Both the position numbers and the translations under genes were made by a program. The notes beneath the pieces were generated by a model that searched no databases, was not told the DNA's origin, and saw only the letters and a program-made list of their open reading frames with translations. Shown here piece by piece: positions 392 through 43,069 of a stretch of DNA of 64,000 nucleotides. Source of the stretch: Pyropia yezoensis (taxonomy: Eukaryota > Rhodophyta > Bangiophyceae > Bangiales > Bangiaceae). The DNA lies in NCBI GenBank assembly GCA_009829735.1, contig CM020618.1:2602882-2666881 (forward strand), read 5' to 3'. How positions within the stretch are numbered: the stretch's first letter is position 1; the number at the start of each line of letters is the position of its first letter.

Positions 392-1505
392 TCATCCGGT
401 CTCGCGGAGCGCGCGCCGCCTGCTCCAGCGCCACCTGCGGTCCCCAAAGGTGTGCGAGGATACCCGGTGTGGGGGTGATGGTGGGGGGCCCATCGGTCGA
501 AACCAACGGGTACAGAAGTGAACAGCACGCACCAGGGGGAGTGGGGACATCGTGTGGGGCCATGGCGGCGGACCCGACGTTCACCCGGTAGGATGCCACG
601 GTGCTCGGCGGACGTCACGATGTCTGATCTGACGGGGAGAGGGAATGCGCCGCGTGTGACGCTCTGATGTCCGGATCTGACCGTGGGCTCAAGAAGGAGC
701 GGGTGGGGCCGTTTGATTTGCGCTCCGGATCAGACCGATTCCCGAAAGAGTGTGAAATTTACATGCAAGGGCAAGAGCCCCTGAAAGTTGAATTCGCGCT
801 CGGGGTAATTGCCGAAGCACTCTGAGGTAACGCCTTTTTTTGCATGGAATAAAAGGCCCGCATTATGGGGCATTTTTTGGGTCTATGAGAAGGACAGTGC
901 AGTACCTCTTTGTTCTCTTGTTCCTTCTTTTTGTGTTCTTGCTCCTGTTTTTCTTGTCGTATATAGACGTATATGTTTTCTCTCGTCCAACCAGGAAGCC
1001 GTGTCGGGAGAGAAGTGGCCCGAACGTGGCACGTGTTGGATGTAATGCAATTTTCGCTCTGAACCCTAGTGTCCGCCCTTAACTGGGGGTGCCCAGCCCA
1101 CGCGGTCAGCCAACCACAGCGATGACGTTGTCTGCACGCCGTTGTTGGGCCAAAAACTACTTACAGTCATTCTCCATTCTTGTCCCTTCCTTTGCTTTCA
1201 CCGGGTGATAGTATCCAAAGTAAGTCGACCGACGGTCGGGGCCAGATGCAGCGATCGATCGCATGAGAAATTAGAGACGAGTTGCTGGCCAGATCAATTT
1301 ACTATCGCTCGATACGCCAGCCTGCAGCTGGCATGTGACGCAGGGCACCCACCGTCGTCGCACCCACCCACGCCGCGCCCACCGTCGTCGCACCCATCCT
1401 CGTCGCGCCTACCGTCATCGCACACACGGCTGTTGCCCCCACCGACCCCGACGAGCCCCCGCCCCCCCCGCCTTCTTCCTCGGTTGGCACTGTGCGTCCC
1501 CCACA
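392..1505. other. intergenic stretch, no gene recognised
   Basis: The sequence is more balanced in base composition than its surroundings, with AT-rich patches around 830-1000. No conserved protein, RNA gene or clear terminal inverted repeat was recognised. 1335-1505 is open in frame with the downstream transposase, but it is a repetitive Pro/His/Arg-rich stretch lacking an ATG and is probably 5' untranslated sequence. Confidence 0.5.
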
Positions 1506-3545
1506 ATGACCACGCCACAACCACCGGCACCCCCGCTGACATCCCCAGGCGTCGCGATTGCGCCGACCGTCGAGGCTGCGATTGAGAGGGCTGTACCAGT
1601 ATTGACGCATGAGTGGACCCATGCTGTCCGGGTAGCAGCGAGAGCGGCGGCTGCGACCTGTGAAGGTCTGATGGCTGCCGGGAACGAGGACCGTACGCGA
1701 GCCTACAACGCCGAGGAGGCCAATGGGCCACAGCCAGCCATGATGGTTGCCGGGCAGCGGCGGCCTCGGCACCGCCAACAAATACCAATGGGGGTCAAGA
1801 AGCAAATTGTTCGGCTACGGGACGCCAATGTACCGTGGGCCGTCGTCATGCAGCAGCTCTCCACGCCGTTCACGAAATCTACTGGCAAAGGCATCATGCG
1901 CCGTGCTCAGCAATATCGCGATATGCAGGATGACGCCCACACTCTGGCACGAGTGAACAGCCGAGGGAGCAAGTGGCCCGAGCTGGATACTCGGCTGTAC
2001 GATTGGTACATTGCCCTCTATTGCCTTGGCCACCGCCGAATTCCCATCACCACGGCGATGCTGCAGGAAGCGGCAAGTGTGATTGCGACCGACCTATCCA
2101 TCACTGACTTTGCCGCCAGCCACGGCTTTGTGCGCGGCTTTTTGAAGCGTCACAACATATGCAACGTGGCGATGCATGGCCAGGCGGGAGCGGTCAACCT
2201 CGCTGCCGCCGCTGCCGCCATTGCGGACATCAGACGTCGCCTGGAGAGTTATCCTCCCGATCGCATACATGACATGGACGAGACGGGATTGCTTTACCGG
2301 TGCCTTCCCTCCCGTTCCTACATCCCCCGCCGGGACCGCTCTCGCGCGCGTGGCACGAAGGCAATGCGGGATATGGACCGCGTGACGCTGGAGCTCTGCA
2401 CCAACGCAAAAGCCACGCACGAGCTGCCCGTGACGATGATTGGGACGGCTGCGGTACCCCTGTGCTTCAGGGCGGAGGGGAACGCCTGCCCGCTGCCATA
2501 CTCTTCACAAAAGCAAGCATGGATGGACAGGCATGCTTACAAGCGGTGGTGGGAAGACGTATTTTTGCCGGCTGTGCGGACACGCCACGGTGGTGAGAAG
2601 TGTGTGCTGATTATGGACAATTCTGCCACACACGATGTCAAGTTGGCGGCTCCTGACGTGGAGCTGATCTTCCTGCCGCCAAATACAACTGCTGCGAACC
2701 AGCCGATGGACGCCGGCGTGATTGCGGCCCTCAAGCGACGGTACAAGCGCCGGCTTCTGGCCATCATCGTGCGGTCATTGCCAGTTCCCCTCATCCCTTC
2801 TGCTCCCACCCCCCCCCAACCACCCTTCTCCCTACCACCCCCTCTCCCACCCCCCCCCCACCAAGCCAATCCCCTTCCGTCCCCCCCCGCGCCCCCCGCT
2901 GTACCCCTTTTCCCTCCCGTCCCGGCCATCACGGCGCAGCGGCTGCCCTTCGGCGGGGGGGCTCCTCTCCGCGGCTTTAGCGCTGAGGTGGAGCGTGCGT
3001 GGCTCGTCCTACCCAGCGATGTGCGCAGCTACGGCCCCGCGAGGGTCCCTACTCAAGAGGTAGCCGACGAGACGGCCAGTGACGCCGCGGACGCAGAAAT
3101 CCAGGCGGACCTCATCGCTGCCGTGCTCCCGCCGGCGGGACCGCACGTGCGGCGGGGGAGAAACTGCGGTCTCGCCGGTCGTGGGAGTGCACACCTGCTG
3201 GATGCAGCTCGCCTCATCCAGGAAGAGTGGGGCGCCATGACGCCTGCCTCCATCGTGCACTGCTGGGTAAAGTCGACTATTCTTCCTTTGTCGATGTCTG
3301 CTGTTGTTGTTTCCACTCACTCAGAGTACACGGGGGGGGGTGACGCTATTTCGAGGGATGTGGACGAGGTGCTGTCTCTTTTGAGGAAGACAACTCTTGG
3401 TACGGATGCTTTTTCTGGCGAGAGCGTGTGTGATGTGCGGGACGGAGTGATGTCTTGGCTTGCCGCCGAGCAAGGCGAAGAGGTTATCCTAGACACGGCT
3501 GACGTGCTGAGCACGTCCGAGGAAGAGCAGCCCACAGAAACATAA
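1506..3545 (+). CDS. pogo/Tigger-type (CENP-B-like) DDE transposase
   Basis: This is a cut-and-paste transposase of the Tc1/mariner-pogo superfamily. From the first in-frame ATG it has 679 residues. A pipsqueak-type helix-turn-helix lies at about 92-140. A Tc5/CENP-B-type second DNA-binding helix-turn-helix follows at about 155-218 (RGSKWPELDTRLYDWYIALY). The RNase-H-fold catalytic domain then carries aspartates D258 (MDETG), D371 (IMDNSATH) and D402 (NQPMDAGV), the spacing expected for a DDD pogo enzyme. A C-terminal helix bundle contains LIQEEWGAMTPASIVHCW. Residues about 422-478 are a Pro tract. Its DNA (2769-2939, GTGCGG...GCGCAG, 171 bp, a multiple of three) looks like an intron read through in frame. 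No disabling lesion was seen. Flanking TIRs were not found, so a domesticated gene cannot be excluded. Confidence 0.87.
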   Translation: MTTPQPPAPPLTSPGVAIAPTVEAAIERAVPVLTHEWTHAVRVAARAAAATCEGLMAAGNEDRTRAYNAEEANGPQPAMMVAGQRRPRHRQQIPMGVKKQIVRLRDANVPWAVVMQQLSTPFTKSTGKGIMRRAQQYRDMQDDAHTLARVNSRGSKWPELDTRLYDWYIALYCLGHRRIPITTAMLQEAASVIATDLSITDFAASHGFVRGFLKRHNICNVAMHGQAGAVNLAAAAAAIADIRRRLESYPPDRIHDMDETGLLYRCLPSRSYIPRRDRSRARGTKAMRDMDRVTLELCTNAKATHELPVTMIGTAAVPLCFRAEGNACPLPYSSQKQAWMDRHAYKRWWEDVFLPAVRTRHGGEKCVLIMDNSATHDVKLAAPDVELIFLPPNTTAANQPMDAGVIAALKRRYKRRLLAIIVRSLPVPLIPSAPTPPQPPFSLPPPLPPPPHQANPLPSPPAPPAVPLFPPVPAITAQRLPFGGGAPLRGFSAEVERAWLVLPSDVRSYGPARVPTQEVADETASDAADAEIQADLIAAVLPPAGPHVRRGRNCGLAGRGSAHLLDAARLIQEEWGAMTPASIVHCWVKSTILPLSMSAVVVSTHSEYTGGGDAISRDVDEVLSLLRKTTLGTDAFSGESVCDVRDGVMSWLAAEQGEEVILDTADVLSTSEEEQPTET

Positions 3546-3654
3546 ACATATCGTGTTGCCATAAAACCTTTAGTGGAAAAAAAAAAAAAGGATGCACAGG
3601 CGCTGACAATGATGCATGATAGAGAGAAGGAAAAGAGGCGACGCCAAGGCCGCT

Positions 3655-6600
3655 ACAGTAGTGCAGGCGGGCGGGGCGAGGCGCCCAATAGTTGTCGGGA
3701 GGGTGTGCGGGCGACATTCAAACCGCCGTGGTCGTGCTGGTGGGCGGGGCGCCGCGCCAGACAATGGTTCGGGGGAACGGGGACGACCCCCAGACCGCCG
3801 TGGTAGTGTAGGTGGGCGGTGCCAGGCGCCTAAAAGAAGTTGGGAGGGTGGGGGGGTGACGCCCAGACCGCTACAGCTGTGCTGCCGGGCGGGGCGAGCC
3901 GCCAAATAGTTGTTGGGAGGGTAGCGGTGCAAGGCCCACACCGTTTCAGTGGTGCAGGTGGGCGGGCACAGGCGCAAGATAATAGTTGGGCGGGAGTGGA
4001 ACAGTACCCAGACCGCTACAGTGGTGCAGGCGAGCGGGGCGAGGTGCCCAGTAATTGTCGGGAGGGTGTGCGGGCGACGTTCATACCGCGGTGGTCGTGC
4101 TGGTGGGCGGGGCGACGCGCGAAACAATGGTTGGGGGGACGGGGGCGACGCCCAGACCGCCGTGGTAGTGCAGGTGGGCGGTGCCAGGCGCCTAAAAGAA
4201 ATTGGGAGGGTGGGAGGGTGACGCCCAGTCCGCTACAGCTGTGCTGCCGGGCGGGGCGAGGCGCCAAACAGTTGTTGGGAGGGTGGGGGGCGACGCCCAG
4301 ACCGCTTCAGTGGTGCAGGTGGGCGGGCAGAGGTGCCAGATAATAGTTGGGCGGGAGGGGGACAGCACCCAGACCGCTACAGTGGTGCAGGTGGGCGGGG
4401 CGAGACGCCAAGTACTTGTCGGGGACGGTAGGGGGGACACACCCAGCCCGCCGTGGTAGTGCTGGTAGCTGGGGTGAGGCGCCCGATAACGGCTGGATGG
4501 GAGGGGGGCGACGCCAAGACCGCTACAGTGGTGCAGGAGGGCGGGGCGAAACGCCAAATAATGGTTGGGAGGGTGGTGGGCGACGCCCAGACCGCCGTGG
4601 AAGTGCTGGTGGGTGGGGCGAGGCGACAGATAGTAGGCGGGAGGGTAGGGGTGCGAGGCCCACGCCGCTTCAGTGGTGCAGGTGGGCGGGCACAGGCGCC
4701 AGATAATAGTTGGGCGGGAGTGGGACAGTACCCAGACCGCTACAGTGGTGCAGGCGGGCGGGGCGAGACGCCAAATAATGGTTGAGAGGGTGGTGGGCGA
4801 CGTTCAAACCGCCGTGGTAGTGCTGGTGGGCGGGGCGACGCGCCAGTCAATGGTTGGGGGGGAGGGGGGCGACGCCCAGACCGCCGCGGTAGTGCAGGTG
4901 GGCGGTGCCAGGCGCCTAAAAGAAATTGGGAGGGTGGGAGGGTGACGCCCAGTCCGCTACAGCTGTGCTGCCGGGCGGGGCGAGGCGCCAAACAGTTGTT
5001 GGGAGGGTGGGGGGCGACGCCCAGACCGCTTCAGTGGTGCAGGTGGGCGGGCAGAGGTGCCAGATAATAGTTGGGCGGGAGGGGGACAGCACCCAGACCG
5101 CTACAGTGGTGCAGGTGGGCGGGGCGAGACGCCAAGTACTTGTCGGGGACGGTAGGGGGGACACACCCAGCCCGCCGTGGTAGTGCTGGTAGCTGGGGTG
5201 AGGCGCCCGATAACGGCTGGATGGGAGGGGGGCGACGCCAAGACCGCTACAGTGGTGCAGGAGGGCGGGGCGAAACGCCAAATAATGGTTGGGAGGGTGG
5301 TGGGCGACGCCCAGACCGCCGTGGAAGTGCTGGTGGGTGGGGCGAGGCGACATATAGTAGGCGGGAGGGTAGGGGTGCGAGGCCCACGCCGCTTCAGTGG
5401 TGCAGGTGGGCGGGCACAGGCGCCAGATAATAGTTGGGCGGGAGTGGGACAGTACCCAGACCGCTACAGTGGTGCAGGCGGGCGGGGCGAGACGCCAAAT
5501 AATGGTTGAGAGGGTGGTGGGCGACGTTCAAACCGCCGTGGTAGTGCTGGTGGGCGGGGCGATGCGCCAGTCAATGGTTGGGGGGGAGGGGGGCGACGCC
5601 CAGACCGCCGCGGTAGTGCAGGTGGGCGGTGCCAGGCGCCTAAAAGAAATTGGGAGGGTGGGAGGGTGACGCCCAGTCCGCTACAGCTGTGCTGCCGGGC
5701 GGGGCGAGGCGCCAAACAGTTGTTGGGAGGGTGGGGGGCGACGCCCAGACCGCTTCAGTGGTGCAGGTGGGCGGGCAGAGGTGCCAGATAATAGTTGGGC
5801 GGGAGGGGGACAGCACCCAGACCGCTACAGTGGTGCAGGTGGGCGGGGCGAGACGCCAAGTACTTGTCGGGGACGGTAGGGGGGACACACCCAGCCCGCC
5901 GTGGTAGTGCTGGTAGCTGGGGTGAGGCGCCCGATAACGGCTGGATGGGAGGGGGGCGACGCCAAGACCGCTACAGTGGTGCAGGAGGGCGGGGCGAAAC
6001 GCCAAATAATGGTTGGGAGGGTGGTGGGCGACGCCCAGACCGCCGTGGAAGTGCTGGTGGGTGGGGCGAGGCGACAGATAGTAGGCGGGAGGGTAGGGGT
6101 GCGAGGCCCACGCCGCTTCAGTGGTGCAGGTGGGCGGGCACAGGCGCCAGATAATAGTTGGGCGGGAGTGGGACAGTACCCAGACCGCTACAGTGGTGCA
6201 GGCGGGCGGGGCGAGACGCCAAATAATGGTTGAGAGGGTGGTGGGCGACGTTCAAACCGCCGTGGTAGTGCTGGTGGGCGGGGCGACGCGCCAGTCAATG
6301 GTTGGGGGGGAGGGGGGCGACGCCCAGACCGCCGCGGTAGTGCAGGTGGGCGGTGCCAGGCGTCTAAAAGAAATTGGGAGGGTGGGAGGGTGACGCCCAG
6401 TCCGCTACAGCTGTGCTGCCGGGCGGGGCGAGGCGCCAAACAGTTGTTGGGAGGGTGGGGGGCGACGCCCAGACCGCTTCAGTGGTGCAGGTGGGCGGGC
6501 AGAGGTGCCAGATAATAGTTGGGCGGGAGGGGGACAGCACCCAGACCGCTACAGTGGTGCAGGTGGGCGGGGCGAGACGCCAAGTACTTGTCGGGGACGG

Positions 6601-7000
6601 TAGGGGGGACACACCCAGCCCGCCGTGGTAGTGCTGGTAGCTGGGGTGAGGCGCCCGATAACGGCTGGATGGGAGGGGGGCGACGCCAAGACCGCTACAG
6701 TGGTGCAGGAGGGCGGGGCGAGACGCCAAATAATGGTTGGGAGGGGGGGGGTCGACGCCCAGACCGCCGTAGCAGTGCAGGTGGGCGGGGCGAGGCGTCG
6801 AAGATATGTTGAGAGGGGGGGGGGGGGGCGCCCAGACCGCAACGGTGGGTCAGGTGGTCGGGGCGGAGGGCCGAATGTGTTATGAAGGTTGGGGGGGGGC
6901 TCCCGGACCGCCGTTGTGGTGCAGGCGGACCGGGCAGAGTGCCGAGTCGCGGTCGGGTGGGAGGGCGGTTGGCAGCGTTCAGAGCGCCGGCGTGCGTCTG
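3655..7000. repeat. satellite array of ~72-bp monomers
   Basis: A tandem array whose landmark CAGACCGCTACAGTGGTGCA, or a variant, recurs about every 72 bp (for example near 4226, 4298, 4371, 4443, 4515, 4588, 4660, 4733, 4805, 4877 and 4950). Monomers alternate between GCTACAGTGGTGCAGG-like and GCCGTGGTAGTGCTGG-like types and share GGTGGGCGGGGCGAG. Outer monomers (3655-4200 and 6750-7000) are more diverged than the core, as expected for array edges. All frames read as Gly/Arg or Pro-rich repeats with no conserved protein, so no gene is called here. Confidence 0.95.
4202..6745. repeat. 724-bp higher-order repeat, three full copies plus part of a fourth
   Basis: Units start at 4202, 4926, 5650 and 6374, exactly 724 bp apart. 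Each holds ten 72-bp monomers that differ from one another, while whole units are almost identical. I see only isolated substitutions between units, such as gcgacaga/gcgacata near 5350 and caggcgccta/caggcgtcta near 6360. The fourth unit diverges after about 6745. This is a textbook higher-order repeat created by recent unit-level amplification. Confidence 0.95.
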
Positions 7001-7595
7001 TGGAGCGCATGGCCAAGCGAAAGGCCAGGAGGGGTGGAGGCACTCGTTTTGCACCAAGTCAATCGTCCATTCCCAGGTCCAGACGCGCCTTCCACATGTG
7101 GTCGAGCGCCGCTGAATGCCACACCACTGGTGCTGACGGCAGAGCATCCCGGAATTTTCTTGCTTGTCGCCTTCAACTTTGCGCGATGTGTCAATCGTAA
7201 GTGTTCCAAGGCTTGGAAGTCCGCGTCTTGATCGCTTTGACACTTGGTTGATTGGCATCCATTCACAGAGGACCCGCGAGAGACGGACACCTTTCTGAGG
7301 ACAAGTGGCCCACAACATGGATCGACCGCAGCGCACTTTCGCTGCTCTCGCGAGCGACGATCGACGAAAGGGGGTGATAGTATTGGAGAAAGACTATATC
7401 CTCCTCTGGAGTATGCACGTGGGGGGACCGGCCCCGGGGGAGAAACACTGCGTTAGCAGAGTAACCCCCCTCACACGCACACTGAACATCCGACGACAAC
7501 CCGCACGCGGCTCGTCGGAGAGACGGGTGAACCGAGCTCGTGGCACTCGGCGACCGGTGGCGATCGTGCCGTGAGTACCGCGGTGTGGAACCGAC
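7001..7595 (-). ncRNA. candidate guide-RNA (omega/fRNA) region 3' of the Fanzor gene
   Basis: No protein is recognised between the satellite edge and the Fanzor stop codon. In characterised Fanzor and TnpB systems the guide RNA is transcribed from the 3' end of the nuclease gene and its downstream flank. By that rule this stretch, read on the minus strand, is the place to look. This is inference from position; I did not identify a conserved fold or an element end. A CACGTGGGGGGACCGGC motif near 7416 resembles one near 11873 and might mark a boundary. Confidence 0.2.
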
Positions 7596-10500
7596 TCACG
7601 CCACGAAAGTTGCCCCACCGCCGCCCGCGACCGCCGGCGCACCGTCTCCCGCCCCTGCCGCTCCGGAGAGCTCCGTGGATGCCACCGTGTGCGTGTCCGC
7701 CACCACCGCCGCCCGCGCCCCGCCGTCGCCACCCGGTCCGACGGCCCCTTCCCTGCCCGCGTCGCCCGTGGCGCCCGCCACCACTGCGGCGCCAGGAGGA
7801 CGGCCGCCGTCGCCGCCGACAGCTCGGCCCGCGGGGGTGGCGCCCGCCGCCTCGCCGTCGTCACCGCCTTCCAGCACCGGCCGTCGCACGCGTTGCGGGC
7901 GCACAAACGGGTGGCACGGCAGCTGCCGCATCTGCCGCAGCGCCTTCCACCCCATGTTGGCCGCCGCGTTGACGTCGCAGTTGACCAGCCGCCGCGCGCA
8001 CGCCCGCTCCACGCAGCGCTTGACGCCCCACACCCCCGCGGCGTCGGGGGCACGAAACACCACGCCCGCCGGGGGTGGGTGCTTGACCGCCCGCTCTGCC
8101 GCCATATTGGCTCCCTCTGCTCGGCAGGCCGCCCGCCGCGCGGCGGAGCGCACCGGCTGGGTGCGCTCCCAGCCGGCCGTCGGCGGCGCACGCGGCCGCC
8201 CCTGCCGGCCACGGCGGCCCCGCCGCCGTCCACAGATCAGGGTACCGCGGGGTTCGGGCGGCGGCGCCGCTGTCAACGCGTACACAACCGCCAGCTGCTG
8301 GCGGCAGCCGGCGCACGCCTGACTCGAGTTGTGCTCGTCTGCGTCCACCATCCAGCACAGCCGCCGAATGTGGCGGCGGAGCCACGTGGCGCCCCCTCGG
8401 GTAGCCGCCTGCCCGACCACCACCACCACCGCCGAGCGGTTGATGCCGCGGCGGAGGCGGCCACCCGTCAGCTCTCGCGCCACGGCTTCGCCCAGCCGCC
8501 GCGGTTGGATGACTTGATGCACCCGCGCCTTGCGCTGGCCCGCCGTCGCCGCGGCGCCCCACACCGCCCTGTACTGTGGCTGGCGGCGTGACTCCATCCA
8601 CTGGCGGCTGGCCGCCAGCACCGCCGCCGCGTCGCCCGTCCGCACCGTGTCGTGCGCGGCCACCACCTCTGGGGTCGTTGCCGGCGGCAGCTGGAGCTCG
8701 GCCAGCCGCTGCGCCGCCTCCCGCCAGTGCGCCGCCGCCGCCCGCGCCGTCATGCCGTTGCCTGCAGCTTCGGTATAGCGGCCCCTGCTCAGGGTGTACA
8801 CGGCGCCCGTGGGGGGGGCCGCCCGCCACCCCCGTGTCGCCCCGACCGCGTCTGCCACGCGCGCCGTCAGGCCGTCCAACGCGAACGCAAACGCGCCGGC
8901 GGCGGCCACGTCCTGCTCCGCCGCCGCCGTCTTGCACGCCGCGAACGCGGCGCCGTCGGGCTGCCCGCCTTCCACGCGCGGCCGGCCCAAGCCGGCGGCG
9001 GCCCGGCGCAGGCATCCGAGTGCCACTTCGACGGCCGCGTGACGCGGCACCCGCCACCGGCCGTTGCCGGTGGTCGCCACCAGGCGCTGCGCCGCGGCCC
9101 GCAGGCGCCGCACGGCGCCGCGCCGGAGGGAGGCCGCCGGCCCCCGCGCCGTTCTCGCAGACCGCGGGCGCGCCGGAGGCGCTGGCGAGGCTGTCCCGCC
9201 CGCGGCGCCGCCGCGTGGCGGTCCAGTCCTGGCCGCCTTGCCGCACGGCGGCTGCCGTTGCTCTGCGCCTCCGGGGCCGGCCTTGCGCTTTCTCCGCGCC
9301 GGCAAGGGGGGGAGGGCGCCCGGCCGCGCCCCGGCCGCCGCCGGCGCCGGCGCCGCGCCCGCTGCCGCCGCGTCGGCCGGCGCCAGCGCGGCGGCCCACC
9401 AGACGACGGCGTCTAGCGCCAGCGCCGCACGGGTGAGCGCGTCCGCGGCCATCAGCCGCGACCGCGCCAGCCGGCGGCGGCGCACGCACGGGCGGTCGCC
9501 CCATGCCGCCGCGATCGGCCCAGACGAGACGGCCGTCAGGACGGTGGCCTTGCCGGGGTCTGCCGACACCACGGTGAGGGTCTCGACGGTGGCGGCGGGA
9601 AAACCCTGCTTCTCCAGCTGCGTGGTCGGGCTCCCCGCCACCCGCTGCTGCACCCGGCTGCCGTTCGCCTTGCGCGTCGCCGCCGCCACGTCGGCGGCCT
9701 CGGCCTCGGCGGCCGTCGCCGGCCGCAACAGCGTAAAGACCACCCCCTCCCCGTTGGAGCGGAGGTCGGCGCTGGCGGTGCACCGCACCGTCTCCAGCCC
9801 CAGGAGTCCCGCAGTGGCCGCCGCCCCCCGCCGACGGACGTCGTCGTACAGCTCGCGGTGTGTGAGCCAGGCGCGCTGGATGAGCGGGCCCAGGCGTGCC
9901 TTGGTCACCGTGCTGTACCCGTGCAGGGTGGCGACCTTGCCAGGCACCAGCGAAAAGGGCTTGTCCACCACCCCCTCCACCTGCACGTGCAGCAGGTACG
10001 GGATGTTCTGTGCCCACCGGCGCTCGACTGCGTGCGCCCCGCCCGTAGGGAACAGCGGCGGGATACCCTGCGCGGGCGCCAGCTGCGCCCGCGCCCGCGC
10101 GTCGGCAATCTCCGTCAGCGCGGCCGCACGCACGTCGGAAGGTAGGGCCTCGAGCTTGGCTGCGTGCGCCGCGCGGGGCGCGTCGCGCTCTCGCTCCAGG
10201 CAGCTCCTGGCGGCGGTGTAGACGGCGGCGCGGCGCCGTCCGCGTTGCTCGTCGCCGCAGGCGGGAGCGTCGGCCGCATCCACCACCTTTGTGGCCACCC
10301 GCCACGCCAGCCGCCGGGTGGCGACCGCCACCGTTCGCGCCGTGTGGGTGACGATGGTGGTCACCACCCCCCGCCACCGCGCGAGGCTGTTGCCGTGAGG
10401 CTCGTGGTGGCGGCACGCGGCGTCAAAGGACGACGCGAGCGCGTCCATGGCGTTACGCGTGGCGTCCATCAAAGCCGGGTACGACACCAACAGCCGACGC

Positions 10501-11542
10501 GCAGCAGGCCCGCACAGCGTGTTGTCCCGCGCCCGCCCGCAGCTGCCGCACTTCACGCCGGCGGGCAGGCTGCCGCCGTGTGCGCCGCGTCAGCAGACCG
10601 CGTACGCCACCCAGTTCCATTACTCGCCCCACTGGGCAGAGCCGGGCAGCGCCGCCGCCCACCCGTCCGCCTTGACGGCGCCAAAGAGGGTGTGCACGGT
10701 TTTGAGCCACACCAGCGTCAGTGTGAAGTGCAGCTGCGTGTGGTGCTCGGCGGTGGAAAGGAACCCGCCGCGCGGGACGGCGTGCGCCGTTCCGTCGGGG
10801 GCGCGGGAAGGGCGCGCAGAACCGCCGCCACGGGCACCGTCACCGACGACGTCACCGTCGCCCGGCAGGCGTACGGGTCGGACGCGGCGGGGTCCCCCCC
10901 GCGGTCGTACGCGCGCGGGCTCTTGTCGCCGCACAGCGCCGTGGCCGGGCACGTCGCCGCCCCCGTCTTGTGAGACCGGTGGCGGCATCGGGCGCAGGGG
11001 CGGCCTCCGGGCGCAGCCCCGCGGCGGTCCTCCACCTCTACCACGTGCCGCGCCATGCCGCGGGAGGTGCTCTCAATCAGGGACGCCGCCCGCCGCGCCC
11101 GCTGCGCCAAAATACCGTCGTCGTCCAACGGGTGGTGCGCGTCCACCCACACGGTCGCGCCCGCCACCGCCGGGGTGGTGGCCGCCTCCAGGGCGGCGCC
11201 CGCCGCCGCCACCGCACCGTCGGTGGTGGGCGCGGCTTCATGCGGCGCCCCGGCTGCGGCGGCCGCCGCCGCCGTCAGTCCTGCGAGGGCCGCGTCCAGC
11301 GCGGCGCCGTCGGGCAGCTGCGGGCGCCGCGCCCGTGCCTCGCCCACGTGGCGCAGCAGCCCGCGGAGGCGCCCCTGCTTAAGGTGTACGGCGGCCTCCA
11401 GCTCGGACAACTCCCGCGGGTCGGCCTGGTCGCCCGACGCGGCGCCATCTCCGGGCGGGAGGGCGTCGTCGGCGTCTGCGCGTGGTCCGTGCGGTCCTTC
11501 GTCTTGAGGGCCGGCGCCCGGCTGCTCCTCGTCCGGCTCCAT
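7596..11542 (-). CDS. Fanzor1-type RNA-guided nuclease (eukaryotic TnpB homologue)
   Basis: Three exons on the minus strand fit together in frame: 11542-10844, 10733-10624 and 10569-7596. The introns are 110 bp (GTGACG...GCAG) and 54 bp (GTAATG...GCAG), giving 1260 residues. The C-terminal half carries the TnpB/Fanzor RuvC hallmarks. RuvC-I is VVSADPGK with D607. A DADEHNSSQACAGC motif gives E1015 and the first Cys pair C1022/C1025. The second pair is KRCVERAC (C1122/C1127), immediately followed by RuvC-III NCDVNAAANM with D1135. The canonical RuvC-II position reads VVVVVGQ and lacks Glu, so catalytic Glu is probably the relocated E1015, as described for Fanzors. Residues about 675-755 are an Arg/Pro/Ala insert. 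The N-terminal exon is acidic with a CARCRHRSHKTGAATC finger-like motif. The protein is longer than most Fanzors. Start ATG chosen over an upstream GTG. No lesion was seen in the core. Confidence 0.88.
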
Positions 11543-11893
11543 TGCGAGCGCCGCGGACGTCAGGAGCGGGTGGGGGGGACGCGTGCTCCTTGGCACGGGG
11601 ACGGGCGGCGATCCCGTCGGGGTGGGGCGAAAAAGAGAGGGAAGAAGGGAGGGGGCGGGGGGTCAGCGTGGTTGGGGGGAGCAGCGAAGGGGTGGGGGTA
11701 GCGATAAGGGGAGGGGGCAGCGATGGGGGGGGGGGGGGAGCGAGCGGGGGGGGTGCAGCGAGCGGGCAGAGGACAGCAAGGGGGCGGGTGGGAAGAGAGT
11801 CGGGGAGGAAGTACAGGGGGTTAGCTGACGAGCCACCCAGCGTGAGCCAATGAGAGGCGTGTTTGTTAGCCTCACGTGCGGGGACCGGCTATG
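11543..11893. other. G-rich intergenic region upstream of the Fanzor gene
   Basis: A degenerate purine-rich repeat (GGGG-GCAGCGA-GGGG) runs through about 11620-11780. It would form the 5' flank of the minus-strand Fanzor gene. No coding sequence or clear promoter motif was recognised. Confidence 0.5.
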
Positions 11894-11927
11894 CTGGGGG
11901 GACCGCGGGGGACCCCCCCACAGACGC
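11894..11927 (+). repeat. dispersed GGGGGGACCGC repeat, copy 1
   Basis: CTGGGGGGACCGCGGGGGAC followed by a C-run and CAGACGC is repeated almost exactly at 14417-14450 in the same orientation, about 2.5 kb away. It may be an element end or a dispersed short repeat. Confidence 0.6.
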
Positions 11928-14400: not shown

Positions 14401-14412
14401 GGGGGACCGCTT

Positions 14413-14480
14413 GGCCTGGGGGGACCGCGGGGGACCCCCCCCAGAGACGCAATGTGGCGGGGTTGCGGTCCCCCCAGGCC
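14413..14480. repeat. inverted repeat with copy 2 of the GGGGGGACCGC repeat
   Basis: GGCCTGGGGGGACCGC at 14413-14428 is perfectly complementary to GCGGTCCCCCCAGGCC at 14465-14480, with 36 bases between. The left arm and loop contain the second copy of the repeat also seen at 11894-11927. A further partial copy sits at about 14398-14410. Confidence 0.85.
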
Positions 14481-27351: not shown

Positions 27352-30300
27352 TCAATCCTCTTGTTCCGCATCCGTTGCGGGTGAGCTCGTCTCGTCCCGA
27401 GGGTCTTGGTTGGCCCCGTCCTCTTGGTCCTCCTCCGTGTCCGACTCCAGAATCTTGCCGGCTCTGGCCACTGGAGTGCCCTCAATCCCGTTCCGTCGCG
27501 TGTAGGCACAGACGTCCGCGATGGGTAGCCGGTTTGAGGGTTCCCATGTATCATCTGCTGGGTTAAAACCGAACCAGCGTACTCGCAGGTACAGGCGCCC
27601 GTCTCTCCAGGCATGGTCGACAAACTTGACGTAGACAAATTCCCGGCCTTCTCCTTGGGATAGCCAGGGTATCGCAGTCCGCTTACGCCGGGTCAAGTCC
27701 CGTTGGCTTGGCGGTGGAGCTCGGGTGACATGGTCGCTGCTCACCCGGTACGGGGAACCATCCACGTCTAGAAGGAAGGTCCAGCCATCCGTATTGAGGA
27801 TCTCATAAGGTCCATCCGTCTTAGAGTCCAGCTTCCCCCGGGTCTTGCTATGGGTGTCCACAAAAACCCAGTCGCCACCACCCAGTTCCTTGTTCTTTTC
27901 CCGGACACCCTTGTCATAGTCCCGCTTGTATCGCTCCTGGGTCTTTGAGATTGACTCCTTGACTCTTGGGAGCAGGAGCTTTAGTTGTTCCAGGAACTCA
28001 TCCTTTGCCTTGGGACCTGACTTCAGTGCAGGCTGGAGACCATCCGGTATTCTTTCCAGGGAGAAGTTGGTCAGCCGCCTTGGGGTGACAAAGTCGAGTG
28101 GAGCGACTCCCGTTGTCCGGTGAACTCGGGAGTTGTAGGCTAGAGTGAGGACAGCCAGGAGCTCGTCCCAGTCTTCTTGGTGCTCCTCCACGTAGTGTCG
28201 TAGCATGTCCACTAGGGTCCGGTTGAATCGTTCCACCTGGCCGTTCGTTTGAGGGTGGTACGTCGTGGTGTATAAGTTCTTGATGCCCATCAGGTCACAG
28301 ACTCCTTGGAAGAACAGGGATGCAAACTGGGGACCGTTGTCGGTTAAGACGGAGTCTGGAGGGCCATAGGCAGCTATCCAGTACTCGCAGAAGGCTGACG
28401 TGACATCCAGAGCCGTGATGGTCCTCAGCGGGATTGCTCGAGTGAACTTGGAGAACCGGTCACAAATGATGAGCAGGTATATGTTGCCACTGGATGTTTC
28501 AGGTAGGGGCCCCAGGATGTCCATGCTTAAGCTTGCAAAGGGCTCCGCCGCAGGGAATAGGCGTAGCTTAGAAGTCTTCTTCCTCTGGGACAACCGGTTC
28601 CTTGCACAAGAAATACAAGCCTCCAGGCACTTATGGACGTCACTGGCCATGGTTTCCCAGTAATAGTGTCGTCTCATGGAAGCATACATCCGATTGATAC
28701 CAGGATGTCCGGCCTGGGGAGACGAGTGCTCCAGGCGTAGGATGTCAGTCCGTAGGCTCCGGGGTACGTAGACTTGAGTTGCCCCATCGAAGGGTGACAC
28801 CCGTACTAGGAGTCCGTCTGTAGACTCGGAGAAGCGACTGTTCCGGTTCAGGTCCATTTGGTGGCGAAGCTCCAAGCATTGAGGGTCCGTCAGTTGTGCC
28901 TCCAGCATCCGGTGAATGGTTACCGGTTGATGAGCTTCAGGTGTCTCGTACAGGGGAGCGTGCCAGCCACGTCCGACATTCGGGAGGATGAAGCAAGGTA
29001 TTTCCTCCGGGATAGGACCGGTATCGGCTGCAGGAGTCTCCAGCCGGGACATGGTGTCGGCGCAGTGGTGCTCCCTCCCTGCTCTGGTGCACACCTTGTA
29101 CTTGAACTCCGAAAGGCGTAGGCGCCACCGGGCGACCCTTCCTTGACTGCTGTCCATGCATAGCAGCCACCTTAGACTGGCGTGGTCCGTCCGGATGAGG
29201 AACTCTTGTCCTTCAAGATATGGACGTAACAGGAAGCAAGCCCAGACGACCGCCAAGCACTCGCGCTCGGTCGTCGAATAGTTCTTCTCGGCTGGAGTCA
29301 AGACGCGACTGTAGTAGCCTATCGGGAGGAAGTGCCCATCAGGTTGCTGCTGGAGTAGTGAGCACCCCACCTGGACGCCACAGGCATCAGTCTCCAGAAC
29401 AAACTGGCCCTCCCGCTTGGGTAACGCCAGTACTGGAGTGGTGGTCAGGCGCTTCTTGAGCTCTTCGAAGGCTGCTGTCTGCTTCTCGTCGAACACCGGG
29501 AGTTGTGCTGGAAGCTTCTTGCTAGTAAGCTTGGTCAAGGGCCGGGCAATCAGAGCGTAGTCCCGTACGAACCGGCGGTAGACGTTGCACATACCCAGGA
29601 AGCTCTTGAGTTCCGTCTGGGTTTTAGGTTGCCGTGCATGCCGGAGGGCCTTGATATTCTTCTCATTGACTCGGAGCTCCCCCGGACTCAACACGTGCCC
29701 CAGGTACTCCACCTCAGTCTCAAACAGGTGGCACTTCTCGGCCTTGAGGGTAACTCCAGCCTTGGACAGGAGGGCCAGGACCTCTCGAAGGTGCTCCAGG
29801 TGTTCCGCTGGGGTCTTGGAGAAAACGATGATGTCGTCCAGGTAGACCAAACATGTTCTCCACCTTAGCCCCGACAGGATGATGTCGATGGCTCTCTGGA
29901 AGGTTGCCGGAGCATTAGTGAGACCAAAAGGGAGACGCTTGCACCGGAATAGTCCCATGTGGCACGTGAAGGTAGTCTTGTCCTTGTCCTCGTCAGCCAG
30001 AGGGATCTGCCAGTAACCGGCATTACAATCCAGCGTCGAGAAGAGGGTGGCATCACCAAGATAGTCGAGGCAATCATCCATCCGGGGTATCGGGTATACA
30101 TCCTTGACTGTCATCTCGTTCAGGCGTCTGTAGTCAACGCAGAAACGGAAGTGACCGCCAGGTTTCGGGACGACTACCACCGGGAAAGCCCACTCGCCAT
30201 CAGACGGCTCGATAACATCCATCTTGAGCATCTTGTTAACCTGCTTCTCAATCTCATCCCGGCGATGAGATCCAGCCCGGTATGGTTGCATGTGCACTGG

Positions 30301-31311
30301 TTTGGCATCTGGCTTGAGTTGAATCCGGTGTAGGGTGGCGTCCATCTTGCCCAGCTCTCCGGACCACAGGTGCCGATATTCCTGGAGAAGCTTCTCCAGT
30401 GCCTCCTTCAAGTCGGGAGGGACGTTTTCTTGGTTGACCTTCGGCATCCCGGGCGGTGCTTGTTCGGGCTTCGGAGTAGTACGGCCAGCCTGCTCTTGTT
30501 CCGGAGATACGTCTAAGGCCGTCAAGTTGGATGCCAGCTCTTGTTGCAGGTTGAAGAGGTCTTCCTTGCTCATAGCGCGGGCGGACCCCCGGTAAGGCTC
30601 TGCTGTACCAACTCGAGTGCCCTTGGCGAGGGTTATTGGCTTCCGGCTCACGTTGACGATCAGCACCGAGAACGGGGTGTGCCTCTCCACCTTCTTGTGA
30701 TGTCCATGGGCTAGGTATAATCGGTGTTTCGCCAGAAATTCCTTGCGTCCATAGATCAGGCATTGACCTGCAGTCCGGGTCGTGACTTGAACCTTGGTCT
30801 CCGAGCGAGGAGGTAGGAGCACCGGTTTGATGAGGGTCAAGGTAGAGGGTGGGATGCGTTCCTTCTGGTTCTTGGCCACACGAACCTTGGTGTCCAGGTG
30901 CTCCAGCACTGGTGACACAAACCCATGGTTGAACTGCACCTTTCCTTCTCCGGGTAGGATGCTCTTGACATGCTGCTTCTGGAAGTCCCAGCCTAGGATG
31001 AGGGGGACTGATAAGGTCTTGACTACTAGAAAGGGAAAAAGCATTGGTTCATTGTTGACATAGATGGCGACGGGAAGACGGCCAAGCGGTCGTAGGGTTT
31101 GACCTGATGCGTCTACAATATGGGTTCTGGTAGGCGCTCTCCAGGCATGTCGACGCCAGCCCGGAGGTAACAGGTTCTCAGTGATGACGCTTGGTCCGGC
31201 TCCCGTGTCGACCACCGGCGTAACAGCTTGGGGGAGGCTATCCCCCACACGCATACGAGCATTAATCTTGAGGTTTTCCTTACGCAGGACGAGCAAGGTC
31301 CCCTTGAACAA
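27352..31311 (-). CDS. pol: element 1 pol polyprotein
   Basis: A long frame of about 1319 codons with the Ty3/gypsy domain order. It has an aspartic protease near the N-terminus, reverse transcriptase (about residues 340-560), RNase H, a zinc-binding integrase with the catalytic core, and a chromodomain-like C-terminus (YLRVRWFGFNPADDTWEP). Order RT-RH-IN plus the chromodomain-like tail places it among the chromovirus-type Ty3 elements. It lies downstream of gag on the same strand. The element looks whole. Confidence 0.95.
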   Translation of the reverse strand: MFKGTLLVLRKENLKINARMRVGDSLPQAVTPVVDTGAGPSVITENLLPPGWRRHAWRAPTRTHIVDASGQTLRPLGRLPVAIYVNNEPMLFPFLVVKTLSVPLILGWDFQKQHVKSILPGEGKVQFNHGFVSPVLEHLDTKVRVAKNQKERIPPSTLTLIKPVLLPPRSETKVQVTTRTAGQCLIYGRKEFLAKHRLYLAHGHHKKVERHTPFSVLIVNVSRKPITLAKGTRVGTAEPYRGSARAMSKEDLFNLQQELASNLTALDVSPEQEQAGRTTPKPEQAPPGMPKVNQENVPPDLKEALEKLLQEYRHLWSGELGKMDATLHRIQLKPDAKPVHMQPYRAGSHRRDEIEKQVNKMLKMDVIEPSDGEWAFPVVVVPKPGGHFRFCVDYRRLNEMTVKDVYPIPRMDDCLDYLGDATLFSTLDCNAGYWQIPLADEDKDKTTFTCHMGLFRCKRLPFGLTNAPATFQRAIDIILSGLRWRTCLVYLDDIIVFSKTPAEHLEHLREVLALLSKAGVTLKAEKCHLFETEVEYLGHVLSPGELRVNEKNIKALRHARQPKTQTELKSFLGMCNVYRRFVRDYALIARPLTKLTSKKLPAQLPVFDEKQTAAFEELKKRLTTTPVLALPKREGQFVLETDACGVQVGCSLLQQQPDGHFLPIGYYSRVLTPAEKNYSTTERECLAVVWACFLLRPYLEGQEFLIRTDHASLRWLLCMDSSQGRVARWRLRLSEFKYKVCTRAGREHHCADTMSRLETPAADTGPIPEEIPCFILPNVGRGWHAPLYETPEAHQPVTIHRMLEAQLTDPQCLELRHQMDLNRNSRFSESTDGLLVRVSPFDGATQVYVPRSLRTDILRLEHSSPQAGHPGINRMYASMRRHYYWETMASDVHKCLEACISCARNRLSQRKKTSKLRLFPAAEPFASLSMDILGPLPETSSGNIYLLIICDRFSKFTRAIPLRTITALDVTSAFCEYWIAAYGPPDSVLTDNGPQFASLFFQGVCDLMGIKNLYTTTYHPQTNGQVERFNRTLVDMLRHYVEEHQEDWDELLAVLTLAYNSRVHRTTGVAPLDFVTPRRLTNFSLERIPDGLQPALKSGPKAKDEFLEQLKLLLPRVKESISKTQERYKRDYDKGVREKNKELGGGDWVFVDTHSKTRGKLDSKTDGPYEILNTDGWTFLLDVDGSPYRVSSDHVTRAPPPSQRDLTRRKRTAIPWLSQGEGREFVYVKFVDHAWRDGRLYLRVRWFGFNPADDTWEPSNRLPIADVCAYTRRNGIEGTPVARAGKILESDTEEDQEDGANQDPRDETSSPATDAEQED

Positions 31312-31439
31312 ACAGGGTGTCCAGGCGGCTACCGGTTGAGCAGGTAACTGCCGTCCTTTCTCCCGGCACGCAAGGGGAGAACAGGTAGAAGTACCCTGCC
31401 GTTGGAGATTCGGGAAGACACTTGGGGAGAGCGCCTGCC

Positions 31440-33200
31440 CTACTCGTTTCCCGGGTCCGAGGAGTCCTTAGAGGTTTCGGTCTCCAGGTCAAAGTCCGTA
31501 GGAGCTTCCCTTGCCAGAGCCTCCGTGATGCTCTGTAAGGTTGCCACTCGGATGGCATGTACCTGTGCCTTGTCCATCTTGGAGGGTGCCCGCCGGTCAG
31601 CCCAGTTGACCGCCTTTGCAAACACCAGTCCTTGACGCTTGAGTTTCTCCTGGAGATCCTTGGGAATGGTCGGGCACTGGTAGGACATATGATCCTCCTT
31701 CTGGCAGAGCCAGCAAGACCGGAATCGCTGGTTCCTGATCTGCTTGGGGGCGACCAGGGAAGGTTGCTCCTTAGAAACGAAGCCGCCCCACTTGTCCCTT
31801 GACTCCATGGGTAAGGCCTCGCCAACTGCGAGTACCGGTACAGGGTAATCACCTCCCTTATACTTGTCGGGTCCGGGACGAACTCGCGACAACGGCTTGG
31901 GAGTTGATACCATAGGAGCCTGGAGGGCCTTGGCTTGCCGGTGCTTGCCCTGGGTGTAGGCCATCAACTGCTGGAAGGTATGTTCTTGATGTTCCTGGTT
32001 GTAGTTCTCCGCATCCACTTGAAGATATTCAGGAAGCCCCTCCGAGAAGATCATCTTGAGCCTGTCCTCAGGGTAAACGTTGCCACAAGCATCGCTCATC
32101 TCCCGGACACGACGGGCGAACGCCTCTGGAGTCTCTTGTCTCTCCATGGTTGCCCGGTTCAGCCTACCGACTGCCTTACGGAGGGAGTCCGCGTCTGCGT
32201 AGTTGGACAGGAGCCAGTTGACCGCCTCCGGATAACTCGCGACGGTACGTCCAACAATGTGCCCGGCAGAGTCTGGTAGAACCTGTGCAAACCGCTGTTC
32301 CGCTTCTCCGGTCATGAAGTTAACCAGGAGATAGAGAGCCTTGCCCTCGGACACATCGTTGTCATTGCATGCCTTGACAAACCGGCGCAGGAAGGCAAAG
32401 ATAAGCGCCGGTCTCTTCCCGGAAAACTTAGGATGTCCCCCAAAGCTCGGCTGCATTCGCCGGTTCAGGGATGCCATCTTCTTGGCCATCTTCCGGGTGT
32501 AACCTTGGTCTTGGTTCTCCAGCCGGTAGTTACCCCAATACGTGACCTTGTTCAGGGTGGCATCTCCCACTTGGTGGGCAGGGAAGTCGAACTCGACTAG
32601 CCTGCGCCGGGTAGGACCGGGAGATGCATCCCAGTCATATCCCTCCTCAGAGCTGGAGGAACTGGTCTCGCTGGTGCTAGAGCGACGGCGACGACGCCGA
32701 CGCCTACGGCTGCTCCGGTCACCGGTCTTGGAGCTCCCCGCCCCATAGGACGCAAGGGGAGGAAAAGCTTGGCCGGTCCCAGGAGTCGAAGTCTCAGGAA
32801 GACCCGTAGAACCAGTCATAGCGGTGCCTCTGGCACTGCCAGTGCCCACAGGAAGAGGTGTATACACCCAGCTGCCATGTGTGGGTCCAGGAGTAAACAC
32901 ACCAGGGGCTATCCCTGGAGGTTGAGGAGTAGAACCGACAGGAGGGAGACGTCTGCTGCGAGCGGACTCAAACGCCGTTGACCCCGGGGTGGCTCCCACA
33001 GGAGGAACAGCCGGAGGAACGGGAGCAGGCGGTACTTGGCCGCCTGTAGACTCCAGTCCACTACCGGATGTCACGCCCAGGTCTGCTTCACCCGTAGGGA
33101 GAACGCCGGGTTGGGCACCGTCCCCCGCGGTGACCAGGGATGCGTCAAGGGACGCGGGGTCTACCCCTTCGGGCACCGTCGTGCCAGGGAGGGTAGCCAT
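31440..33200 (-). CDS. gag: element 1 gag
   Basis: A 586-codon frame just inside the 5' LTR. It has a Pro/Thr/Ser/Gly-rich N-terminal third and an Arg-rich stretch (RRRRRRRRRSSTSETSSSSS). A helical capsid-like region (about 270-440) is followed by a CCHC-type zinc knuckle (CWLCQKEDHMSYQC). This is the expected structural-protein layout of a Ty3 element. Pol follows downstream. Confidence 0.93.
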   Translation of the reverse strand: MATLPGTTVPEGVDPASLDASLVTAGDGAQPGVLPTGEADLGVTSGSGLESTGGQVPPAPVPPAVPPVGATPGSTAFESARSRRLPPVGSTPQPPGIAPGVFTPGPTHGSWVYTPLPVGTGSARGTAMTGSTGLPETSTPGTGQAFPPLASYGAGSSKTGDRSSRRRRRRRRRSSTSETSSSSSEEGYDWDASPGPTRRRLVEFDFPAHQVGDATLNKVTYWGNYRLENQDQGYTRKMAKKMASLNRRMQPSFGGHPKFSGKRPALIFAFLRRFVKACNDNDVSEGKALYLLVNFMTGEAEQRFAQVLPDSAGHIVGRTVASYPEAVNWLLSNYADADSLRKAVGRLNRATMERQETPEAFARRVREMSDACGNVYPEDRLKMIFSEGLPEYLQVDAENYNQEHQEHTFQQLMAYTQGKHRQAKALQAPMVSTPKPLSRVRPGPDKYKGGDYPVPVLAVGEALPMESRDKWGGFVSKEQPSLVAPKQIRNQRFRSCWLCQKEDHMSYQCPTIPKDLQEKLKRQGLVFAKAVNWADRRAPSKMDKAQVHAIRVATLQSITEALAREAPTDFDLETETSKDSSDPGNE

Positions 33201-33409
33201 GTTGGTCTCTTGACAGCCACAGTCCAGTTACCTGCGTGTCCAAAGATCGCAAGACCACAAGAGAGGGGTTGGAGAGCCAGGAATGGGGTTCCCGTGAACG
33301 GGTGCAAATAATTCCCAAACCACAGAAAAAGACAGAATAGGAACAACGCAACCGCTGCTCCCAAATGTCTCTTCTCAAACACTCCAATCCCCTGCTGCTC
33401 CACCAAATA

Positions 33410-42569: not shown

Positions 42570-43069
42570 NNNNNNNNNNNNNNNNNNNNNNNNNNNNNNN
42601 NNNNNNNNNNNNNNNNNNNNNNNNNNNNNNNNNNNNNNNNNNNNNNNNNNNNNNNNNNNNNNNNNNNNNNNNNNNNNNNNNNNNNNNNNNNNNNNNNNNN
42701 NNNNNNNNNNNNNNNNNNNNNNNNNNNNNNNNNNNNNNNNNNNNNNNNNNNNNNNNNNNNNNNNNNNNNNNNNNNNNNNNNNNNNNNNNNNNNNNNNNNN
42801 NNNNNNNNNNNNNNNNNNNNNNNNNNNNNNNNNNNNNNNNNNNNNNNNNNNNNNNNNNNNNNNNNNNNNNNNNNNNNNNNNNNNNNNNNNNNNNNNNNNN
42901 NNNNNNNNNNNNNNNNNNNNNNNNNNNNNNNNNNNNNNNNNNNNNNNNNNNNNNNNNNNNNNNNNNNNNNNNNNNNNNNNNNNNNNNNNNNNNNNNNNNN
43001 NNNNNNNNNNNNNNNNNNNNNNNNNNNNNNNNNNNNNNNNNNNNNNNNNNNNNNNNNNNNNNNNNNNNN
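42570..43069. other. assembly gap (500 N)
   Basis: Exactly 500 N. The round number suggests a placeholder of unknown true size. The 3' end of element 2 should lie here. Confidence 1.

What the first reader, a model, noticed from the sequence alone, without database searches (positions are those of the whole stretch)
7596..11542. Spliced Fanzor1 RNA-guided nuclease gene
The minus-strand gene has the full set of TnpB/Fanzor marks: RuvC-I Asp (SADPGK), Cys pair after DEHNSSQ, second Cys pair, and DVNAAANM RuvC-III. Two short introns make a 1260-codon model that closes in frame. Fanzors are eukaryotic OMEGA nucleases that use a guide RNA from their own 3' region. A long version with an N-terminal acidic, Cys-containing extension in an apparent alga would be a new member. 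The core looks intact, so it may be active or recently so.
Basis: partly seen in the sequence, partly recalled or inferred. Interest (0 to 1): 0.88.

Follow-up and report, generated by a model that had tools for sequence, protein, structure and literature searches.

The report
Broken giant Fanzor1-like gene
A red-alga (probably nori-type) genome holds a worn-out copy of an unusually large relative of Fanzor, the eukaryotic RNA-guided DNA-cutting enzymes; this copy looks broken rather than spliced, but less damaged relatives exist in other sequence data.

Summary
Window 11542-7596 (minus strand) matches an 89%-identical relative, P0003, over 711 residues without alignment gaps, but is broken by a frameshift between 10802 and 10796, a TAA at 10622-10620 and a TGA at 10592-10590. 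The supposed introns fall on sequence that is coding in three relatives (first) or four (second). 169 of 1047 two-intron GT-AG models close in frame, so closure is weak evidence. This copy is most likely a pseudogene, although its D-E-D residues remain.

Nine relatives were found; three are named 'hypothetical protein [Pyropia yezoensis]', so the host is probably a Bangiales red alga. The two longest have 1331 and 1408 residues, about twice the usual Fanzor1 (600-700, PMC11423790). Fanzor1 membership rests on ordered motifs, a Cx4C second Cys pair and a profile score that 0 of 200 column shuffles reached, although HHalign's own probability is only 3.8%. Curated family libraries, PDB searches and structure prediction gave no significant support. 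Verdict: a divergent, very large Fanzor1-like subfamily, present here as a decayed copy.

The parts
7596..11542 (-). Degenerate gene of the large Fanzor1-like family; start ATG at 11542, stop codon 7598-7596
   Evidence: tblastn of relatives; ORFs
10796..11542 (-). N-terminal piece in frame -1 (249 codons), with an acidic start and a CARCR...CPA Cys motif
   Evidence: 89% identity to P0003 residues 1-249; Cys shared by P0002, P0003 and P0004
10796..10802 (-). Frameshift, in a C-rich run
   Evidence: frame changes from -1 to -3 against P0003
10620..10622 (-). In-frame TAA stop at a position that is Tyr in P0002, P0003, P0004 and P0007
10590..10592 (-). In-frame TGA stop at a position (P0003 residue 318) that is Cys in P0002, P0003, P0004 and P0007
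7596..10589 (-). Open 997-residue remainder, holding the RuvC and Zn-finger motifs
9750..9758 (-). SNG, aligned with the Fanzor1 WED 'TDG' motif (TNG in P0002, P0004, P0005 and in the fungal Fanzor1 P0041)
   Evidence: TDG motif named in PMC10711439
9558..9560 (-). RuvC-I Asp of DPG
9090..9374 (-). Ala/Pro/Gly/Arg-rich linker inside RuvC, part of an enlarged stretch between RuvC-I and RuvC-II
   Evidence: DPG-to-E spacing 405 here vs 66-272 in 70 Fanzor1s
8334..8336 (-). RuvC-II alternative Glu (E-x6-CxxC)
8304..8315 (-). First Zn-finger pair CxxC
7998..8015 (-). Second Zn-finger pair Cx4C
7974..7979 (-). RuvC-III: Asp kept; the residue before it is Cys where P0004, P0005 and P0006 have Arg (RD)
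7399..7485 (-). Predicted three-stem RNA fold 3' of the gene; a lead for a guide-RNA scaffold, not claimed
   Evidence: z -2.23, 4 of 200 shuffles as good; picked after seeing a 206-base fold with z -0.94
1275..3545 (+). Neighbouring Tc5/pogo-type transposase ORF (DDE_1 + HTH_Tnp_Tc5); link to the gene not shown

Best explanation
The locus is a decayed copy of a very large Fanzor1-like RNA-guided nuclease gene carried by Bangiales red algae. Shown: the supposed introns are coding sequence, and the reading frame is broken by a frameshift and two stops, while relatives read through. Supported: the family belongs to the Fanzor1 side of the TnpB/Fanzor superfamily, with RuvC D-E-D residues, the alternative Glu and a Cx4C Zn-finger pair, an enlarged stretch between RuvC-I and RuvC-II and a Cys-rich N-terminal extension. 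Inferred from known Fanzors: an intact member would bind an RNA copied from the 3' end of its element, whose terminal stretch guides it to matching DNA next to a short motif; it would cut both strands there and help its element persist. This copy probably makes no full-length protein.
For: Gap-free alignment with P0003 on both sides of the frame change and through both stops, 711 residues. Excess of changes on the window branch: 33 vs 13, p 0.003, with P0002 as outgroup; 25 vs 13, p 0.05, with P0004. Signature motifs, 0 of 20000 shuffles for the fuller form. Second Cys pair Cx4C (28) or Cx5C (44) in the 72 Fanzor1s that my pattern parsed, of 120; Cx4C in the window family. Profile score 31.1 at the E-x-[ST]S-CxxC site, 0 of 200 column shuffles as high (maximum 26.2). 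Shared conserved columns 18 vs shuffled mean 11.3. MAFFT places TNG, DPG, G and E..CxxC on their counterparts in Fanzor1s including SpuFz1. Sub-threshold PF07282 match in 4 of 4 C-terminal pieces.
Against: No Pfam or NCBIfam hit for the window protein, no PDB sequence hit for it and only chance-like ones for the family profiles. HHalign's own probability against Fanzor1 is 3.8% (E 0.011). A Fanzor1 HMM scores the family weakly: 8 of 10 members got any score, and of the four tested against 500 shuffles each, three do not beat all of theirs. The published DPG/alternative-Glu pattern is met by 0 of 10. Both AlphaFold models are poor (pLDDT 36.8 and 43.4) and Foldseek found nothing significant. 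The shared-column margin is thin: 18 against a shuffle maximum of 17. The DNA of the relatives was not seen. No guide RNA, TIR or copy number was established.
Confidence: 0.8

Rival explanations
1. An active, spliced Fanzor1 gene: two short introns remove the frame change and stops.
For: GT and AG stand at the proposed sites.
Against: The removed stretches are coding in P0002, P0003 and P0004 (the second also in P0007) and about as conserved as their surroundings; 169 of 1047 two-intron models close in frame by opportunity alone.
Confidence: 0.04
2. The gene is intact in the alga, and the frameshift and stops are sequencing or assembly errors.
For: The frameshift lies in a C-rich run, where indel errors are common (general knowledge).
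Against: Two separate nonsense codons and an excess of window-branch changes (33 vs 13) point to real decay; RD has become CD.
Confidence: 0.1
3. The family is not Fanzor1 but another RuvC/Zn-finger lineage (Fanzor2, TnpB or an unrelated RNase-H-like nuclease) with similar motifs.
For: No standard profile or structure match; very long spacings.
Against: Cx4C matches the sampled Fanzor1s, whereas the published pattern for Fanzor-like TnpBs has CxxC; TNG and DPG align with Fanzor1; shuffle control. SpuFz1 itself has no Pfam hit in the same scan, so the lack of one is not telling.
Confidence: 0.1

Closest known systems
Fanzor1 (SpuFz1, PpFz1, GtFz1)
   Same: Order of motifs TDG/TNG, DPG/DPN, G(D/N), E-x6-CxxC, second Cys pair Cx4C (seen in SpuFz1 and PpFz1), (N)RD; D-E-D residues; eukaryotic host. 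GtFz1's sequence was not seen.
   Different: 1331 and 1408 residues in the two longest members against mostly 600-700; DPG-to-Glu spacing 405-446 in four of five measurable members (212 in P0007) against 66-272; Cys-rich N-terminal extension; 14-21% identity to P0005 in one alignment
PpFz1 FRI (Fanzor RuvC insertion) domain
   Same: An insertion within RuvC (PMC11423790, passages)
   Different: The stretch here is longer, with an Ala/Pro/Gly/Arg-rich linker; relation to FRI and cyclophilin binding were not tested
CMe-1A Fanzor1 of the red alga Cyanidioschyzon merolae
   Same: Fanzor1 in a red alga, no TIRs recognised (PMC3627910, section 12)
Fanzor2 and prokaryotic TnpB
   Same: RuvC plus C4 Zn finger
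   Different: CxxC second pair in the published pattern for Fanzor-like TnpBs and in the LaTranC and Cas12g alignments printed; no Fanzor2 sequence set was compared

Membership tests
TnpB/Fanzor superfamily | RuvC-I D, [TS][TS]xxCxxC, second Cys pair and RuvC-III D, in order | tested here: met
   0 of 20000 shuffles for the fuller pattern
TnpB/Fanzor superfamily | Published spacing D-x(125,275)-[TS][TS] | tested here: not met
   The D of DPG is more than 400 residues from the [TS]S site; the regex as run was met, but through other Asp residues
TnpB/Fanzor superfamily | RD at RuvC-III | tested here: not met
   CD in the window copy; RD in P0004, P0005 and P0006
TnpB/Fanzor superfamily | Pfam PF07282 (Cas12f1-like TNB) above threshold | tested here: not met
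   4 of 4 C-terminal pieces match below threshold, best E 0.01; whole window protein no hit; PpFz1 is also below threshold and SpuFz1 has no hit
Fanzor lineage (DPG + alternative Glu) | DPGx(120,160)Ex6CxxCx(12,18)CxxCx(4,8)D | tested here: not met
   0 of 10 family sequences; DPG and Ex6CxxC are present in the window but spacing is 405 and the second pair is Cx4C
Fanzor1 | Second Cys pair Cx4C/Cx5C, as in sampled Fanzor1s | tested here: met
   CVE..C in P0001, P0004, P0005, P0006 and P0007; 28 Cx4C and 44 Cx5C among 72 parsed of 120
Fanzor1 | TDG motif in WED before RuvC-I | tested here: inconclusive
   SNG/TNG at the aligned place; Fanzor1 P0041 also has TNG
Fanzor1 | Profile similarity above shuffles | tested here: met
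   0 of 200 column shuffles reach the score, but HHalign probability only 3.8%; single-sequence HMM scores weak
Fanzor1 | WED/REC/RuvC/TNB fold | tested here: inconclusive
   pLDDT 36.8 and 43.4; Foldseek nothing at E<=0.001
Fanzor1 | Guide RNA from the 3' end and carriage by a DNA transposon | tested here: inconclusive
   no TIR; weak 3' fold; Tc5-type transposase nearby
Fanzor1 | RNA-guided DNA cleavage | not testable with these tools
   needs biochemistry

The most novel reading that the evidence does not exclude
Bangiales red algae carry a distinct, still-mobile giant Fanzor1 subfamily (about 1,300-1,400 residues) with a new Cys-rich N-terminal domain and a large RuvC insertion. It would form a two-part system with a neighbouring Tc5/pogo transposase and a 3' three-stem guide RNA, and the window is one dying copy.
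Probability: 0.2. Interest if true: 0.72.

Novelty: new variant of a known kind. Interest (0 to 1): 0.5.

Why it matters
Most Fanzor1s have 600-700 residues. A subfamily twice that size with extra parts would show how far a eukaryotic RNA-guided nuclease can be elaborated, and gives red-algal candidates (P0004 first) for testing activity and guide-RNA use. It also warns that short 'introns' predicted to rescue a transposon gene should be checked against relatives.

Tried and rejected
Sequence searches of the window protein against PDB, Pfam and NCBIfam found nothing. A profile of five family sequences found one chance-like PDB chain (E 1.2); a C-terminal profile found two beta-microseminoprotein chains (E about 0.7); NCBIfam gave a Cas12b match in 1 of 4 C-terminal pieces at E 0.09. 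A viral-contig scan with the family: 161 pattern matches, no relative by tblastn. Viral-contig pattern scans for Fanzor-like motifs gave 0, 18 and 0 stretches; of the 18, five had an ORF with the motif, two of these TnpB-like (L005, L012), and none met my fuller pattern. Inverted-repeat searches around the gene and the transposase found no convincing TIR. Rfam: no match. First AlphaFold model (8 family rows): pLDDT 36.8. Second (17 rows mixing 5 family and 12 other sequences from the Fanzor1 search, so partly circular; RuvC-III misaligned): pLDDT 43.4; Foldseek: 128 matches at E<=10, none at E<=0.001, no Fanzor among the 50 shown. A larger mixed alignment misplaced RuvC-I. HHalign of the C-terminal profile with one bacterial TnpB aligned only the SSxxCxxC site. 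The 3' RNA fold was chosen after the event; the 206-base flank shows no excess (z -0.94) and other windows reach similar z. Rows dropped or cut: the family profile used 8 of 10 sequences (P0009 and P0010 left out), with P0003 cut to 711 residues and P0002's divergent tail removed; the shared-column test used 6 family sequences and 25 of 50 Fanzor1s. Papers: four were seen as passages, one of them also by one section (PMC3627910; PMC10711439, PMC10432273, PMC11423790); supplementary tables were not seen, so Bangiales copies may already be listed there. No paper of the library holds Fanzor with Porphyra or Pyropia; 5 hold Fanzor with 'red algae' (4 listed, none opened) and 3 with Rhodophyta (only PMC3627910 opened). 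A search of TnpB with Bangiales names listed 6 of 734 papers, none of the 6 holding TnpB.
Full report
What is there. The minus strand holds a 997-codon open stretch, 10589-7596, and upstream, in another frame, an open stretch with an ATG at 11542. A database search gave four relatives, and a second search with an alignment of trimmed pieces gave five more, nine in all (P0002-P0010). P0003, 89% identical, aligns in two gap-free pieces from window 11542 to 9411, 711 residues; along it the window changes frame between 10796 and 10802 and has two stops, TAA at 10622-10620 and TGA at 10592-10590. P0002 and P0004 also carry residues across this stretch. I saw only the proteins of the relatives, not their DNA; even if some were predicted with introns, these residues are in their coding parts. 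P0003 ends in what I recall as translated sequencing adapter.

Introns or damage. P0003 and P0002 agree there at 23 of 37 and 11 of 18 positions, against 449 of 703 over the whole; P0003 and P0004 at 14 of 37 and 10 of 18, against 345 of 693. These are ordinary coding sequence; the first stretch also varies in length among relatives. The TAA falls on a Tyr of P0002, P0003, P0004 and P0007, the TGA on a Cys of the same four. Closing in frame says little: 15 of 124 one-intron and 169 of 1047 two-intron GT-AG models around this place do so. In a relative-rate comparison the window has 33 private changes against 13 for P0003 with P0002 as outgroup (701 positions, p 0.003), and 25 against 13 with P0004 (690 positions, p 0.05). 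I conclude decay; the frameshift, in a C-rich run, is the one lesion that could easily be an assembly error.

Host. Three of the nine relatives carry the name 'hypothetical protein [Pyropia yezoensis]'; the other six have no name. The window is GC-rich, with Ty3-type retrotransposon genes and a Tc5/pogo-type transposase. A Bangiales red alga is the likely host; the species was not established.

Is the family Fanzor1? The signature is present in order: DPG, E-x6-CxxC with [ST]S, Cx4C and D..AA.N. A relaxed form was met by 1 of 20000 shuffles of the window protein, a fuller one by 0 of 20000. To compare with real Fanzor1s I obtained 211 proteins at E<=10, 120 listed, including SpuFz1 (P0011) and PpFz1 (P0012). 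Among the 120, 72 could be parsed for the second Cys pair: 28 Cx4C and 44 Cx5C; 48 did not parse. The window family has Cx4C, where the published pattern for Fanzor-like TnpBs has CxxC (PMC10711439, passages). In MAFFT alignments the family's TNG/SNG falls on the Fanzor1 TDG (TNG in P0041), DPG on DPG/DPN, G on GD/GN, and E..CxxC on E..CxxC. No single alignment placed every motif: mis-set the second Cys pair, A7 misplaced DPG, A8 misplaced RuvC-III. HHalign of eight family members against 52 Fanzor1s (selected from 88 that passed a length filter) scored 31.1 at the E-[ST]S-CxxC site; neither any of 200 column shuffles (maximum 26.2) nor the reversed family reached it, and a second scoring setting gave the same verdict; HHalign's own probability is only 3.8%, E 0.011. 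A count of shared conserved columns gave 18 against a shuffled mean of 11.3 and maximum of 17 in 60.

Against this, a Fanzor1 HMM scores the family weakly: 8 of 10 members got a score at all; P0001 (1.8 bits) beats all of its 500 shuffles, but P0006, P0005 and P0004 do not beat all of theirs. PDB, Pfam and NCBIfam searches of the whole window protein are empty; the C-terminal pieces match PF07282 in 4 of 4, all below threshold, best E 0.01. SpuFz1 has no Pfam hit in the same library and PpFz1 only sub-threshold ones, so empty scans are weak evidence. Structure prediction gave no usable model. I put membership on the Fanzor1 side at about 0.85; it remains remote.

What differs. P0004 has 1408 and P0002 1331 residues, against 'the majority ... 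between 600 and 700' for Fanzor1 (PMC11423790, passage); the 120 listed here have a median of 623 and a maximum of 998 (the search's own length limits bound this). The DPG-to-Glu spacing is 405-446 in P0001, P0002, P0004 and P0005 (212 in P0007, whose gene model lacks stretches), against 66-272 in 70 Fanzor1s. Part of it is an Ala/Pro/Gly/Arg-rich linker (9374-9090). PpFz1 also has a RuvC insertion (FRI), of about 100 residues, that binds cyclophilin; whether the two are related was not tested. The N-terminal extension contains Cys positions shared by P0002, P0003 and P0004 and has no Pfam match above threshold.

How it would work. In SpuFz1 metal ions are held by residues that include D383, E541 and D606 (PMC10432273, passages); these are the Asp of DPN, the Glu of DEYKTSS and the Asp of WNRD in P0011. 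The window's D344, E752 and D872 are the counterparts by alignment, and all three survive. By analogy an intact member would be guided by an RNA from the 3' end of its element. In the window the 87 bases 7399-7485 can form a three-stem fold (z -2.23, 4 of 200 shuffles as good), but the 206-base flank has no excess (z -0.94) and other windows score alike; without further copies this is only a lead. No TIR was found. A 17-base near-identical direct repeat flanks the gene (7416-7432 and 11873-11889); at the three mismatches allowed, 88 of 100 shuffles of the window give at least as many matches.

Known or new. Fanzor1 has been reported from one red alga in the paper's own table, Cyanidioschyzon merolae (PMC3627910). 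No paper of the library holds Fanzor with Porphyra or Pyropia, but supplementary tables could not be opened. I rate it a new variant of a known kind, with the window copy itself a relic.

Noticed in passing
1275-3545 (+): Long ORF with DDE_1 and HTH_Tnp_Tc5 domains (Tc5/pogo-type transposase), about 4 kb from the Fanzor-like gene; no TIR found.
   Followed up: partly
3637-6865: Tandem array of a 72-bp unit with longer-period higher-order repeats, between the transposase and the Fanzor-like gene.
   Followed up: no
11880-11927 and 14402-14450: Direct repeat of 49 bases (86%) with an identical core GGGGGGACCGCGGGGGACCCCCCC, on both sides of a low-complexity GC-rich stretch.
   Followed up: partly
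27352-33227 (-): Ty3-type retrotransposon: protease, reverse transcriptase, RNase H, integrase and a weak chromodomain match, with a gag-like ORF upstream (judged by eye).
   Followed up: partly
48007-48671 (+): 93-bp tandem repeat, about 7 copies at 96% match, inside a 653-residue open frame without Pfam match.
   Followed up: no
42570-43069: Run of N of 500 bases (assembly gap or mask).
   Followed up: no
P0003, last residues: Database relative ends in what looks like translated sequencing-adapter sequence (recognised from recall).
   Followed up: partly
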